A stretch of DNA of 32,054 bases from contig ONYL01000024.1 in the NCBI GenBank assembly GCA_900322035.1, positions 1 through 32,054 of the forward strand, written 5' to 3'. This document shows, one piece after another, positions 13,759 through 26,582 of the stretch (position 1 is its first letter; each line of letters opens with the position of its first letter). The position numbers and the translations under genes were made by a program. Source of the stretch: an uncultured Prevotella sp. GTDB lineage: Bacteria; Bacteroidota; Bacteroidia; Bacteroidales; Bacteroidaceae. The notes below the pieces were generated by a model, which worked only from the letters and a program-made list of their open reading frames with translations, had not been told where the DNA came from and did no database searches.

Positions 13759-15408
13759 TTATTGTTTTCTGTCACTGTTTTTGCTCCGGTTGATTCGCAA
13801 ATATTCTGATGGCGTTAGTCCGGTTATACGTTTGAAAGATGTGACGAAGGTGTTGCGGCTCTTGAATCCAACACTTGTCGAGTAGCCCTCTATCGTGTAG
13901 TTGCCGTATTTTTGTGCATCGTTCATCATCTTGCAAGCCTGACGGATTCTATATTTGTTCAGAAAGCTATTGAAATTGCAGTGAGCCTTCTCGTTAATCA
14001 CCTGCGACATGTTTCGATAGTTGGTTCCTGCGAGCTCTGCCAAGCGTCGTATGGAGAAGTCCATTTCCAATATCTCATTGCTATTGTCCATCACCTCGCA
14101 TGCCTTCATGTAAATAGCCGTTTTCTCTGCCTCATTCAGTCTGGAGTCCTTGTATTTTATATTCTTGTCTTCCACAGGCATTACGTCAACGGTGGAAATC
14201 ATTTCTTGCACCTTGTTGTAGAGCGCTTCGTTAGAGTCGCTTAATTGTCTGTTCTTGCGTGCGAGTATTATTGCGAAGCCCGAAACGAGCACAACGATCA
14301 ACAGTAAAATGGATGCTGCTATTTGTATCGTCATTTTCTCTGTGCGTTCTTCAGCAATCCTGTCGTTCTGCTTGCGTAGATTGTCCATGAACGATAGTTC
14401 TTTTAATCCTGCCACTTGTTGGTAATTCAGCATCTCTTCCTTGGCACTCAGATATTTGCTATGATATTTCTCTGCAGCCTGACCGTCGCCCATTAGCCGC
14501 ATCACCTGCCATATTTCGTAGTATATTTGAATACTTACGTCTTTCATGCCGTAGCGTGTGGCTAACGCTTCTGCCTTGTGTAGGTTGATTAATGCCGCGT
14601 CGTATTCTTTCATTTGTTGTTGAATCTTGGCCATGTTGAAAAGACCTACTGCCGTATAGCGTACGTGCGAGTCATCGTCGGGCATCATCTTGGATTGCTT
14701 GTCAAACAAAGCAATAGCGGCTGTCAGATTACCTTTTTGTATTTGTTGGTAGGCTTCATAGTATAATAAGTTGAATTTTGTGAACTCTGGTTTGTCATTG
14801 TTTTTTAATTTCCTGAATATATTCCATTCCTTGTCTAATGAGTGCGGCTGATTTAACTCCCAAGCTATGGATATGGCATTGCCGAAGGCAGTGTTGAGGG
14901 TGTTGTAGTTCTTTTCGGCAAGAGCTGTATGAAATGCCTTTTTGATGTAGTACAGTGCCTTTCTTAATGCGTCATTTCCACCGCCCTGCTCACCTATGCT
15001 ACTGAATAGATGACCATAGTCCATGTAGAGTGTAGACAACTCATAGTGTATTTCCTGGCATATGGCACTTGCGCGTAATAAGCTCTCATAAGCTCTGGAA
15101 AGATCGTAGTATCGAAATAGGTATACGTAAGCTTTTACAGTATAGCCTCTCACGATGATTTTCTTTTCATCCTCAGACAACTGCTTACTGTATCTTTCCG
15201 TTAGCATTGATGCGCAAAGCAATGCACTGTCGCTCATGCTTGGTGTGTTGGCATAGTGACGGGATGTGTTCAATAGCTTTTCTGAGTCAAAGGTTTTCCA
15301 CACACTGAAAGTGTGCGGCTGGCTTCCGGCATATCCTGTTTTTGACCACAATAGCATTAATGTGATCATAAAAATAATTGATACAATTTGTATTCCCTTT
15401 CTCCTCAT
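13759..15408 (-). CDS. Membrane-anchored TPR - AraC-type regulator (module B)
   Basis: Taken from the ATG at 15408 the product has 549 residues: an N-terminal membrane or signal segment (IVSIIFMITLMLLW), a region of TPR-like helical repeats (about 50-345, with patterns such as AVGLFNMAKIQQQMKEYDAA), a second membrane helix (about 361-384), a charged linker, and a C-terminal AraC-type DNA-binding domain (about 450-540) ending TSFKRITGLTPSEYLRINRS. The layout predicts a periplasmic sensor joined to a cytoplasmic DNA-binding domain. A frame start 13 codons further up (15447) is possible, but a TAATTTTG element at 15414-15421 falls inside it. The likely target is the exported-protein gene downstream. 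It has the same plan as the regulator at 20922-22634 but is only distantly similar by eye. Confidence 0.8.
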   Translation of the reverse strand: MRRKGIQIVSIIFMITLMLLWSKTGYAGSQPHTFSVWKTFDSEKLLNTSRHYANTPSMSDSALLCASMLTERYSKQLSEDEKKIIVRGYTVKAYVYLFRYYDLSRAYESLLRASAICQEIHYELSTLYMDYGHLFSSIGEQGGGNDALRKALYYIKKAFHTALAEKNYNTLNTAFGNAISIAWELNQPHSLDKEWNIFRKLKNNDKPEFTKFNLLYYEAYQQIQKGNLTAAIALFDKQSKMMPDDDSHVRYTAVGLFNMAKIQQQMKEYDAALINLHKAEALATRYGMKDVSIQIYYEIWQVMRLMGDGQAAEKYHSKYLSAKEEMLNYQQVAGLKELSFMDNLRKQNDRIAEERTEKMTIQIAASILLLIVVLVSGFAIILARKNRQLSDSNEALYNKVQEMISTVDVMPVEDKNIKYKDSRLNEAEKTAIYMKACEVMDNSNEILEMDFSIRRLAELAGTNYRNMSQVINEKAHCNFNSFLNKYRIRQACKMMNDAQKYGNYTIEGYSTSVGFKSRNTFVTSFKRITGLTPSEYLRINRSKNSDRKQ

Positions 15409-15538
15409 GACTGCAAAATTACAAATATTTTGCGTAAACTGTTGCATTCGTTTGCACTTTATCCGCTATGAAAATAAATTGATTATAGCCACTTGAGGTT
15501 GGGTAAAGAAAAAACAAAAATGGATATGGAGTGATGAT

Positions 15539-20921: not shown

Positions 20922-22634
20922 TCACCTGTCAGTTTGTACGGCTTTGCGGTATTCATTCGGGGTCATACCGTATTTCTGATAGAACAAAGTGTAAAGGGTG
21001 CTCGTCGAAGAGAATCCGCAGTCATGGGCCACGGCCTCGATGGTGTGGTTGGAATGCTGGCGCAGCAGCGAGCAGGCATGTTCGAGCCGCAGGTCGTTGA
21101 CGAAGTGGGCATAACTGGTCTGCGCGAATTTTTTGAAGAGTTGTGCAAACTTGTTTTTAGGGATGTTGAGTTCCTCAAGCAGCTTGTCACGCGAGAGGTT
21201 TGGGTCAAGAAAGAGCTGCTGCCTAACCAGTCGGTCGTAGAGTCGGCGGTAGAGAATGGTGTCGGTGTCGTTTTCTCCCATTTCATCGTTGTTTGGCTGC
21301 TTTTCCTCAGCCATGAAGCCTTGGATGGGCTCTTTCTTCTGGAGTTGTTCGATGTATTTGGCCATGCGCTGGTTTTTCTTCAGTATGAGGGCGGCGTTGC
21401 GCTTCTCGCGCAGCACCAACAAGGTTCCCGCGGCCAGGATGACGATCACGATGACTATCATCTCTTTTTGGCGCATCTTGGCCAATGTGCGCTCCTGCTC
21501 AATGGCCTGGGCCTTGTTCTCGTAGTTGTTGGTGATCTCGGTGATGGCACTTTGTTCCTCGTTGTGGCGGAAGGCATTCTGCAGCGAGTCGAGCTGCCTG
21601 AAGGTGGCGATGGCCTCGTCGCGGCGCCCCGTCTTGTCGTAGGCGTCGGCCACTTGGCGGTAGAGTTGGCAGAGATCAAAATAAGGTTCCTGCCCCAGAT
21701 CGATGATGTTGGGACGAATGCGGTCCCAAAGGCTGATGATGTCGTCCCATCGGCAGGCCTCGGTCAGATACTCCACGGCATGAAGATAGTCGTAACTGAA
21801 AGGATCCTTGGTCTTGAGAAAGTTGCCGTAGCAGGCTTCAGCCTCTTGTTCTCGTCCAGCGCGCAGCAGAAAAATGGTCTTGTGAATATCGATGTCGGCC
21901 TGCCACCGTGGGTCGGAAGCAGAGAAGGGGCTGCCCTTCGCGGATTGTGAGGATTTGACGAACTGCTCCAGCTCGCCGATGGTGGCCAGTCCGTCTCGGT
22001 GATCCTCCTGCATCATCTTGATGAGGGTGATGTAATAGTAGTAGATGTCTTCATATTTCTTTGGGGTCGTGCCCTTCTTGGCCAGGTTGATGGCTTGCCT
22101 GAGCATCTGATAGCTCTTGTCGGTGAAACCGCCTGAATGGGCGATTTTTCCCTCATTAAAGACCACTACCGACTGCATGTAGGGGGTGTTGCTGTCGGCT
22201 GTCAGCTTCTTGAGCATCATCGCATAACGGTTCATCTCGGCGAGATTGTGGTTGTTGTCGAAGCACATGAGCAGTTTACCGATCACTTTCTGCTGAAAGG
22301 CGATGTCGCCGCTTGCCCGTTCGTCGTAGAGTCCGCGCTTATAATACTTGAGGCTCTCGAAGAAATTGCCGCGGTTGTAGTAGAGGTCGCCCCTGATTTC
22401 GTTGGAGCTATACGGCTCTATTTGCCCTGCCGACTCTAATTGGCGGAGAAGGGAGAGCGATTTTTGCAGGTCGGTGAAGTTGTAGGAGTAAATCTTGTCG
22501 ATCTTTGCCCGAGTTTCGGGAGAAACCTTTTCTTTGGCTTGAACATAGGCAAAGGCTGATAAGAGAAGGACTGCAAGCATCAGTCTCATTAAAAATGAGT
22601 ATGCCCGACGACTGCTTATATTTTTGTCACCCAT
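20922..22634 (-). CDS. Membrane-anchored TPR - AraC-type regulator (module A)
   Basis: The 570-residue product has an N-terminal membrane or signal segment (about 16-33), TPR-like helical repeats over about 40-350 (for example GDLYYNRGNFFESLKYYKRG and VADAYDKTGRRDEAIATFRQ), a second membrane helix (about 391-408), a basic linker and coiled segment, and a C-terminal AraC-type helix-turn-helix domain (about 480-565) with HTIEAVAHDCGFSSTSTLY and KYGMTPNEYRKA. It should sense a periplasmic signal and act on DNA from the membrane. The likely target is the adhesin - protease operon directly downstream, which has its own promoter in the 124-base gap. The ATG at 22634 is placed 40 bases after a good promoter; an ATG 15 codons later (MRLMLAV) would also give a signal segment. 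Confidence 0.82.
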   Translation of the reverse strand: MGDKNISSRRAYSFLMRLMLAVLLLSAFAYVQAKEKVSPETRAKIDKIYSYNFTDLQKSLSLLRQLESAGQIEPYSSNEIRGDLYYNRGNFFESLKYYKRGLYDERASGDIAFQQKVIGKLLMCFDNNHNLAEMNRYAMMLKKLTADSNTPYMQSVVVFNEGKIAHSGGFTDKSYQMLRQAINLAKKGTTPKKYEDIYYYYITLIKMMQEDHRDGLATIGELEQFVKSSQSAKGSPFSASDPRWQADIDIHKTIFLLRAGREQEAEACYGNFLKTKDPFSYDYLHAVEYLTEACRWDDIISLWDRIRPNIIDLGQEPYFDLCQLYRQVADAYDKTGRRDEAIATFRQLDSLQNAFRHNEEQSAITEITNNYENKAQAIEQERTLAKMRQKEMIVIVIVILAAGTLLVLREKRNAALILKKNQRMAKYIEQLQKKEPIQGFMAEEKQPNNDEMGENDTDTILYRRLYDRLVRQQLFLDPNLSRDKLLEELNIPKNKFAQLFKKFAQTSYAHFVNDLRLEHACSLLRQHSNHTIEAVAHDCGFSSTSTLYTLFYQKYGMTPNEYRKAVQTDR

Positions 22635-25989: not shown

Positions 25990-26096
25990 CAAAGTTTTTT
26001 TCATTGTACCCGACAATAGGATTTATTTTTCTCTCGGAAGGCATCTTCGGTCCAAGGAGGGCCGGTCTGAAACTTCCCGCTTTAGAGAAAAGCAAA

Positions 26097-26132
26097 AGGC
26101 CGACAACAGGTTTTCACACCTCTTGTCGGCCT
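26097..26132 (-). terminator. Terminator of the 40-residue peptide gene
   Basis: On the minus strand AGGCCGACAAGAGG pairs with CCTGTTGTCGGCCT (one mismatch) around an 8-base loop and is followed by TTTGCTTTTC. It begins 25 bases after the stop of the peptide gene at 26157 and isolates it from dusB. Confidence 0.75.
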
Positions 26133-26156
26133 TCGCTCTCTATTTACCGGTAAGAC

Positions 26157-26279
26157 TTAGACAAATCCACAAGACCCACCATGCATCAGGGCCTCTCCGT
26201 AGGGTTCTACTACGTCTTTCCAATAATTCTCCCAAATTTTCTGTGCTTTCTGCTTCAAATTCATAAAAAACTGTTTCAT
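26157..26279 (-). CDS. Small peptide gene, 40 residues, unknown function
   Basis: The frame begins MKQFFMNLKQKAQKIW, continues as a helix-forming, Trp- and Tyr-containing segment (IWENYWKDVVEPYG) and ends HGGSCGFV. Expression signals are unusually complete for a short frame: a -33/-7 promoter (CTTG, 20 bases, TAACTTTG, 26433-26464), a purine-rich AAAGGA nine bases before the ATG, and a stem-loop terminator directly behind it. The predicted transcript is only about 330 bases and carries a leader of about 145 bases. The product has no signal peptide. The Gly-Gly followed by a five-residue end with one Cys recalls leader/core boundaries of secreted or modified peptides, but no processing enzyme or exporter is adjacent. 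I do not recognise a family. A structural small protein or dual-function RNA are alternatives. Confidence 0.65.
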   Translation of the reverse strand: MKQFFMNLKQKAQKIWENYWKDVVEPYGEALMHGGSCGFV

Positions 26280-26432
26280 AATTTTTTCCTTTCTTTTTAG
26301 TGTTACATGTTTTTAACTAACTCTTTCTGCTTACCTTCACAGGCTCGCTCTTGTTATCCTGAATCTAATTACCTTAGAATACCTTTCGGCTTATCGCCTT
26401 ATATCATTATCCTTGTTTCATCTTTCTGGGTG

Positions 26433-26464
26433 CAAAGTTAAGGCCATTTCAGTGAATAATCAAG
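26433..26464 (-). promoter_or_regulatory. Promoter of the 40-residue peptide gene
   Basis: Minus-strand CTTG (26461-26464), exactly 20 bases, TAACTTTG (26433-26440). It has the same two boxes and spacing as the divergent crcB promoter. The transcript should start near 26426. Confidence 0.7.
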
Positions 26465-26500: not shown

Positions 26501-26582
26501 TTTGACTTGAATCAAATCTTGTCAGTCGGAGGCTTGACCCAAGTCAATTCTTGTCATCATCTTTGCTTGTCGTAGCTGACAA
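26501..26582. promoter_or_regulatory. Three short dyads and a 22-base imperfect direct repeat between divergent promoters
   Basis: Dyads are TTTGACTTGAATCAAA (26501-26516), TTGACCCAAGTCAA (26534-26547) and TTGTCGTAGCTGACAA (26567-26582). The first two lie in two imperfect direct copies (26503-26524 and 26535-26556, 17 of 22 bases equal by hand count, both ending CTTGTCA) spaced 32 bases. The cluster lies between the -33 boxes of the peptide gene and crcB, the right place for operator sites. The binding protein is unknown. Confidence 0.45.

What the first reader, a model, noticed from the sequence alone, without database searches (positions are those of the whole stretch)
26157..26464. Stand-alone gene for a 40-residue peptide ending HGGSCGFV
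Seen: a short frame with its own consensus promoter, a leader of about 145 bases, an AAAGGA before the ATG, and a terminator right behind the stop, so the whole unit encodes only this peptide. Inference: a helix-like N-terminal part followed by Gly-Gly and a five-residue Cys-containing end could be leader and core of a processed peptide, or a small regulatory protein. No modifying enzyme is adjacent, so it would have to work in trans.
Basis: partly seen in the sequence, partly recalled or inferred. Interest (0 to 1): 0.72.

Follow-up and report, generated by a model that had tools for sequence, protein, structure and literature searches.

The report
Tiny protein in a shared regulon
A 40-residue protein with no match in two large protein-family libraries belongs to a conserved family in Prevotella-type bacteria, and a DNA element before its promoter also stands before small RNAs and other tiny proteins in related genera.

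Summary
In detail: on the minus strand, 26157-26279 encodes a 40-aa protein with its own promoter box, a leader of about 150 nt, a ribosome site and a terminator. It belongs to an unnamed microprotein family: 32 of 398 genus genomes match the profile (one looks false), and 17 of 17 measurable pairs of other members have dN/dS of 0-0.48. Members share a cationic amphipathic helix, a YGEAL-type motif and a short tail. GG is present in only 14 of 27, so a leader/core peptide is not supported.

The main result is upstream. In 35 of 35 loci a TTGAC-N4-GTCAA palindrome (up to 2 mismatches) is centred 75-77 nt before the end of the -7 box; the window has two copies. The window's genome has 9 such promoters (control 0), before this gene, a membrane peptide related to one encoded ahead of the microprotein in 13 other loci, two secreted proteins and probable small RNAs. 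In other genera the module precedes FopS RNAs, PII genes and other microproteins. It tracks a short CRP/FNR protein with a PETLSR helix (94/100 versus 8/50 genomes). Binding, signal and function are untested; that protein was not found in the incomplete window genome.

The parts
26157..26279 (-). 40-aa microprotein gene, stop codon included
   Evidence: Translation; family members in about 30 other genomes; dN/dS of other members below 1
26287..26292 (-). AAAGGA, ribosome-binding purine run
   Evidence: Sequence; similar purine runs before the ATG of many other members, by eye
26280..26432 (-). leader between -7 box and ATG, 153 nt; its folding energy is not unusual (z -0.8 against 200 shuffles)
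26352..26360 (-). AGGATAACA, a motif seen in many leaders or ribosome sites of the family and of other units with the same promoter
   Evidence: read by eye; not counted
26433..26440 (-). -7 promoter box TAACTTTG
   Evidence: Bacteroidota consensus TAnnTTTG recalled
26461..26463 (-). -33 TTG of the same promoter
26502..26515 (-). operator 1, TTGATTCAAGTCAA, centre 76 nt before the end of the -7 box
26534..26547 (-). operator 2, TTGACTTGGGTCAA, 32 nt further upstream (108 nt)
   Evidence: a second copy at 107-108 nt in 11 of 35 loci
26091..26137 (-). intrinsic terminator hairpin behind the stop
   Evidence: fold -31.4 kcal/mol, T-rich tail

Best explanation
It is a microprotein gene in a Bacteroidaceae-wide regulon governed by a CRP/FNR-type activator. 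Shown by sequence: a palindrome at fixed distance before the promoter, a short unit with terminator, and a conserved product of mostly 35-40 aa with a cationic amphipathic helix, a YGEAL-type motif and a short small-residue tail. Inferred: a short CRP/FNR protein with helix MTPETLSR binds the palindrome and activates transcription when it senses a membrane, redox or nutrient stress. The peptide then lies along the inner face of the cytoplasmic membrane through its helix and modulates a membrane complex or the membrane itself. In some lineages it works beside a ~29-aa transmembrane peptide encoded in the same leader; in the window's genome the related peptide lies behind a separate copy of the same promoter module.
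For: Operator: 35 of 35 loci have the palindrome (18 with 0, 14 with 1, 3 with 2 mismatches) centred 75-77 nt before the end of the -7 box; elsewhere in these loci 9 sites with up to 1 mismatch in 362,944 nt. Own genome: 9 modules, reversed control 0, one before a homologue of the TM peptide (22.1 bits, best of 300 shuffles 6.3). Regulator: strong hits to the PETLSR protein in 100 of 151 genomes; at least 2 modules in 94 of those 100 versus 8 of 50 without (Fisher p 1e-22; rank test on the counts 1e-19). In passages of PMC1274295, Ser or Pro at CRP position 180 goes with TTGACnnnnGTCAA, while proteins that lost Glu 181 read other motifs. Protein: dN/dS 0-0.48 in 17 of 17 measurable pairs, pairs not independent; helical moment above the shuffled mean and positive helix charge in 27 of 27; helix 2-35 in the model. 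Partner: intact TM peptide in 13 of 35 leaders.
Against: The PETLSR protein was not found in the window's own genome, which is 86.9% complete. The 151 genomes are related, 12 of the 150 counted were those in which I first found the protein, and the threshold of 2 modules was chosen after seeing the counts. 8 genomes have at least 2 modules without a strong hit and 6 have the protein with fewer than 2. No palindrome of this class lies before the six PETLSR genes read, so no autoregulation was seen. Membrane location rests on composition only; the window copy has the joint lowest helix charge (+2). The TM-peptide frame looks broken in L069 while the microprotein is intact. The helix shuffles compare a best window with single shuffles, which favours the real peptides. 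No expression, binding or phenotype data.
Confidence: 0.5

Rival explanations
1. A secreted signalling or modified peptide: helix as leader, cut after Gly-Gly, with the short Cys-containing end as product, processed by enzymes encoded elsewhere.
For: 14 of 27 members have GG before a short tail; 20 of 27 have Cys in the last six residues; tails differ between subfamilies and are alike within them.
Against: 13 of 27 lack GG. The predicted helix crosses the GG. No neighbour family (frames of 90 aa or more) recurs in more than 6 of 35 loci. No NCBIfam or Pfam hit. Glu is at -7, not at the -8 of the usual motif (recalled). Processing enzymes elsewhere in the genomes were not searched for.
Confidence: 0.12
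2. A type I toxin-like membrane peptide whose mRNA is held in check by an RNA from the same region or by small RNAs of the same regulon.
For: Stand-alone short amphipathic peptide, leader of 55-365 nt, varied genomic places; small-RNA-like units share its promoter module.
Against: One match per genome in all 32 matching genomes. No antitoxin RNA was seen, but none was searched for. The window leader is not unusually structured (z -0.8). The peptide is more charged than known toxins of this type (recalled).
Confidence: 0.12
3. The RNA is the functional product (a FopS-like small RNA), and the frame is a by-product or a second function.
For: The same module precedes FopS small RNAs in L259, L263 and L272 (73-76 bits, cut-off 56) and probable noncoding units in the window's genome; AGGATAACA and TTCAATAGG recur by eye.
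Against: Codon constraint: dN/dS 0-0.48. No Rfam hit in the window at gathering score.
Confidence: 0.15
4. The palindrome is read by another regulator (HcpR, the 2gau-like or the 1zyb-like CRP/FNR protein, or a non-CRP protein), not by the PETLSR protein.
For: HcpR is the only CRP/FNR protein found over the cut-offs in the window's genome. Proteins outside the CRP/FNR family were not tested.
Against: G220 (8 modules) and G526 (a module before its peptide gene; its total was not counted) show neither HcpR nor the 2gau-like protein. The 1zyb-like protein is in 146 of 151 genomes, module-poor ones included, and was not found in G023 and G049, which have 11 and 12 modules. The motif published for BT4338/Crp is TATGTTnTAnAACATA (passage of PMC3878776).
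Confidence: 0.2

Closest known systems
FopS small RNAs of Bacteroidaceae (RF04319) and their unidentified enhancer (PMC11697453: start of abstract and passages seen)
   Same: Three FopS loci in two other genera sit behind the same operator-promoter module; the paper says an unknown transcriptional regulator possibly enhances FopS transcription under bile and perhaps other membrane stress.
   Different: The window unit encodes a conserved protein and has no Rfam match. Most FopS copies in Bacteroides-like genomes probably lack the module: 15 genomes of genus g3 have 1-5 modules, against 14 FopS copies in B. thetaiotaomicron.
HcpR1 / FNR-type regulons reading TTGACnnnnGTCAA (PMC1274295: passages seen)
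   Same: Same palindrome and the same residue rule at the recognition helix, by my own alignment.
   Different: The candidate here is a short protein without a PF13545 match. I recognised no hcp or nitrogen-oxide gene among the units read; this was by eye.
Cur (BT4338) carbon-starvation regulon with small RNA MasB (PMC10994844, PMC10294740: passages seen)
   Same: A CRP-family activator that drives a small RNA in Bacteroides.
   Different: Different published motif (TATGTTnTAnAACATA, passage of PMC3878776).
Stress-induced amphipathic or membrane microproteins of bacteria (recalled)
   Same: Stand-alone, 30-40 aa, amphipathic, regulator-controlled.
   Different: No match in Pfam (window copy) or NCBIfam (window copy and two other members).

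Membership tests
CRP/FNR-controlled transcription unit | palindrome of the FNR class at fixed phase before a promoter | tested here: met
   35 of 35 loci, 75-77 nt, up to 2 mismatches
CRP/FNR-controlled transcription unit | regulator co-occurs with the element | tested here: met
   94/100 versus 8/50 genomes; but not found in the window's genome itself
CRP/FNR-controlled transcription unit | regulator binds and activates | not testable with these tools
   needs gel shift and knockout
Double-glycine leader peptide | conserved GG before the core | tested here: not met
   14 of 27 members
Double-glycine leader peptide | peptidase-transporter nearby or in trans | tested here: inconclusive
   no recurrent neighbour family in more than 6 of 35 loci; neighbours were not all identified and trans copies not searched
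FopS small RNA (RF04319) | covariance model match | tested here: not met
   no match in the window at gathering score
Type I toxin | antisense or trans antitoxin RNA | not tested
   no dedicated search made
YGEAL microprotein family (defined here) | 35-40 aa, basic amphipathic start, YG[DE]AL-type motif (variants in the second tier), short small-residue tail | tested here: met
   profile match 5.8e-19, but the window copy is a row of that profile; 31-51% identity to the 13 other first-tier members

The most novel reading that the evidence does not exclude
A CRP/FNR-type activator with a PETLSR helix, not described in what I could search, runs a Bacteroidaceae-wide regulon whose outputs are mostly tiny: microproteins, TM peptides, secreted ~118-aa proteins and small RNAs including some FopS copies. 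It would be a candidate for the unknown enhancer of FopS transcription, and this peptide would be one of its membrane effectors.
Probability: 0.4. Interest if true: 0.82.

Novelty: new variant of a known kind. Interest (0 to 1): 0.64.

Why it matters
Frames this short are often skipped by annotation. If the regulon is real, one compact DNA rule (palindrome, about 61 nt, -7 box) would predict many unannotated small genes and small RNAs in abundant gut bacteria. It would also give a testable candidate for the regulator that the FopS authors call unknown, at least for FopS copies that carry the module.

Tried and rejected
Direct search with the single 40-aa query gave mostly chance matches at E up to 1 (97 of 301 genomes, its own included); two in-genus hits with a full-length small frame opened the family. 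The DNA motif found 19 of 398 genomes, of which 5 are not small genes of this kind. The profile's 32 include one likely false match inside a 198-aa frame (G425). Plasmids gave one chance hit and phages none (one member as query). No recurrent neighbour. In 399 family genomes 6 matched: 4 clear genus members and two weak hits in longer frames that I do not count. Regulators set aside: the 1zyb-like protein; the 2gau-like protein and HcpR, both without a hit in G220 and G526. No palindrome of this class before the six PETLSR genes read. Likeness of 25-aa TM peptides of another genus to the TM peptide failed a shuffle test (3 of 3). Of 11 microproteins from other genera, two (L173b, L274b) beat all 300 shuffles against the family profile and nine did not. 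Several module matches outside the genus look like chance (inside long frames or before tRNAs). The paper searches (the last found nothing) listed no paper that, by title and start of abstract, is about this peptide family or this operator.

Full report
What is there. The frame at 26279-26157 on the minus strand encodes MKQFFMNLKQKAQKIWENYWKDVVEPYGEALMHGGSCGFV. AAAGGA precedes the ATG. A TAACTTTG box with TTG 20 nt upstream gives a leader of 153 nt counted from the box, and a strong hairpin with a T-rich tail follows the stop. The neighbours are a Dus-like gene downstream on the same strand, which has its own TAACTTTG, and a CrcB-like gene divergent upstream (both names recalled, not searched).

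A family. The window peptide has no Pfam or NCBIfam match; two other members, tried in NCBIfam only, have none. A search with the single sequence led to two in-genus small frames sharing YG[ED]ALLRGGSYG. A degenerate DNA pattern hit 19 of 398 genus genomes; 14, the window's included, are frames of 38-40 aa. A profile of these hit 32 of 398. The second tier keeps the helix and mostly YGEA but ends GRGYTCA, SRGLAGA, SRGCACV, SKGIA and the like. One of the 32 (G425) is probably false. In 399 genomes spread over the family, only four same-genus genomes are clear. Named carriers are Hallella mizrahii, H. bergensis and nine records labelled Prevotella sp. or uncultured Prevotella (11 loci). Of 32 pairs at 60% identity or more (not independent), 17 give a finite dN/dS, all 0-0.48; 14 have saturated synonymous change and one has none. 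The window copy has no relative close enough for this test.

The protein. All 27 aligned members have a positively charged helix part and a helical moment above the shuffled mean (the comparison favours the real peptides because the best window was chosen). AlphaFold2 gives one helix, residues 2-35, and a loose end (mean pLDDT 74); a model of 40 residues says little about partners. GG is present in 14 of 27 and Cys in the last six residues in 20 of 27, so a conserved cleavage site is not supported.

The operator. In 35 of 35 loci (34 fetched plus the window) a palindrome TTGAC-N4-GTCAA with up to 2 mismatches is centred 75-77 nt before the end of a TAnnTTTG box: 18 perfect, 14 with one and 3 with two mismatches. 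Eleven, the window among them, have a second copy at 107-108 nt. Elsewhere in these loci there are 9 sites with up to one mismatch in 362,944 nt; two-mismatch background was not counted.

A regulon. In the window's genome the pattern TTGAN6TCAA-N58..64-TANNTTTG occurs 9 times, the reversed control 0. The 9 units (read by eye) are this gene; a 31-aa TM peptide (L142); two 120-aa proteins with signal-peptide-like starts (L146, L147); and five stretches read as small RNAs, with no convincing frame before a terminator-like hairpin (L139, L141, L143, L144, L145; L143 has one 25-aa ATG frame). The L142 peptide matches a profile of 13 hydrophobic peptides encoded in the leader of the microprotein in other genomes (22.1 bits against 6.3 for the best of 300 shuffles). 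Thus two small frames lie in one leader-gene unit in 13 of 35 loci and behind two copies of the module in the window's genome. In L069 the TM-peptide frame looks broken.

Beyond the genus. 126 of 151 family genomes have at least one module match. 15 of 15 genus genomes have 6-13, against 0-2 for the reversed control; several other genera are near control level. Units read in other genera (16 loci and 20 regions picked by me, not at random) include ~117-119-aa proteins with signal-peptide-like starts, microproteins of 24-43 aa, two PII genes (L261: Pfam P-II 6.7e-20; L273 by likeness), and three FopS small RNAs. Some matches were clearly chance.

Which regulator. CRP/FNR proteins found by their helix-turn-helix in 8 genus genomes fall into an HcpR-like, a 2gau-like and a 1zyb-like type. 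None tracks the module: G220 and G526 show neither of the first two, and the 1zyb-like protein is in 146 of 151 genomes yet not in G023 and G049, which have 11 and 12 modules. A search by the cNMP domain in 14 genomes found a fourth, short type with helix M[TS]PETLSR in five module-rich genomes (G220, G023, G049, G202, G152) and in G526, whose modules were not counted. Over 151 genomes, 100 have a strong hit (E below 1e-55), 15 a weak one; 94 of the 100 have at least two modules, against 8 of 50 others, the window's genome left out (table typed over). Exceptions with two or more modules and no strong hit: G012, G021, G047, G086, G096, G156, G163, G235, of which G021, G047 and G163 have weak hits. 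Exceptions with the protein and fewer than two: G003, G009, G042, G053, G059, G067. Twelve of the 150 were discovery genomes, and the cut at two modules was set after the counts were seen; the rank test (1e-19) needs no cut. Passages of PMC1274295 relate Ser or Pro at CRP position 180 to TTGACnnnnGTCAA; the helix here reads P-E-T-L-S-R there by my own alignment. The window's genome (86.9% complete) showed no such protein, so the link rests on relatives.

How it works, most likely. Shown: gene, family, palindrome, shared module. Inferred: activation by the PETLSR protein and a membrane-bound peptide. The companions suggest an envelope or nutrient stress: a TM peptide; secreted proteins with weak likeness to CpxP/Spy models, far below the cut-offs; FopS RNAs, which rise with bile salts in Bacteroides thetaiotaomicron (PMC11697453 passages); PII genes. 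I put 0.75 on the palindrome being a CRP/FNR-type site, 0.65 on the PETLSR protein as its reader, and about 0.45 on membrane action.

Novelty. The kind (a regulator-controlled microprotein) is known. I found this family, this operator rule and this regulator in none of the libraries or paper searches named above. The FopS authors write that an unknown regulator possibly enhances FopS transcription; this gives a candidate for copies that carry the module.

Noticed in passing
L148 (window genome, contig 16), 95-1489 (+) and 1498-2172 (-): The only CRP/FNR gene found in the window's genome is HcpR-like (best solved match 9day) and lies convergent to a 464-aa protein that looks like a DUF438/hemerythrin/PAS protein (recalled; no NCBIfam hit).
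   Followed up: partly
L261 (g14) and L273 (g21): The same module ends 306 and 283 nt before a PII nitrogen-regulator gene, with a short Asn/Gln-rich frame in the leader.
   Followed up: partly
L169, L170, L171, L177, L179, L182 (genus g3): Between palindrome and -7 box lies a second motif like ATGTTATAAAACAT, which resembles the published BT4338/Crp motif; two regulators may share these promoters (by eye, not counted).
   Followed up: no
L175 (genus g3): A module match stands before a 125-aa frame and then a frame that looks like NuoA, the start of a respiratory complex I cluster (recalled).
   Followed up: no
L139, L143, L145 (window genome): Three related probable small RNAs of about 180-240 nt with near-identical terminators and the same promoter module; no Rfam match at gathering score.
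   Followed up: partly
L069: The TM-peptide frame in the leader looks broken while the downstream microprotein is intact.
   Followed up: no
window 13759-15447 (-) and 20922-22634 (-): Two large proteins with TPR-like and C-terminal AraC-type regions beside long secreted proteins with T9SS-like ends (recognised by eye only).
   Followed up: no
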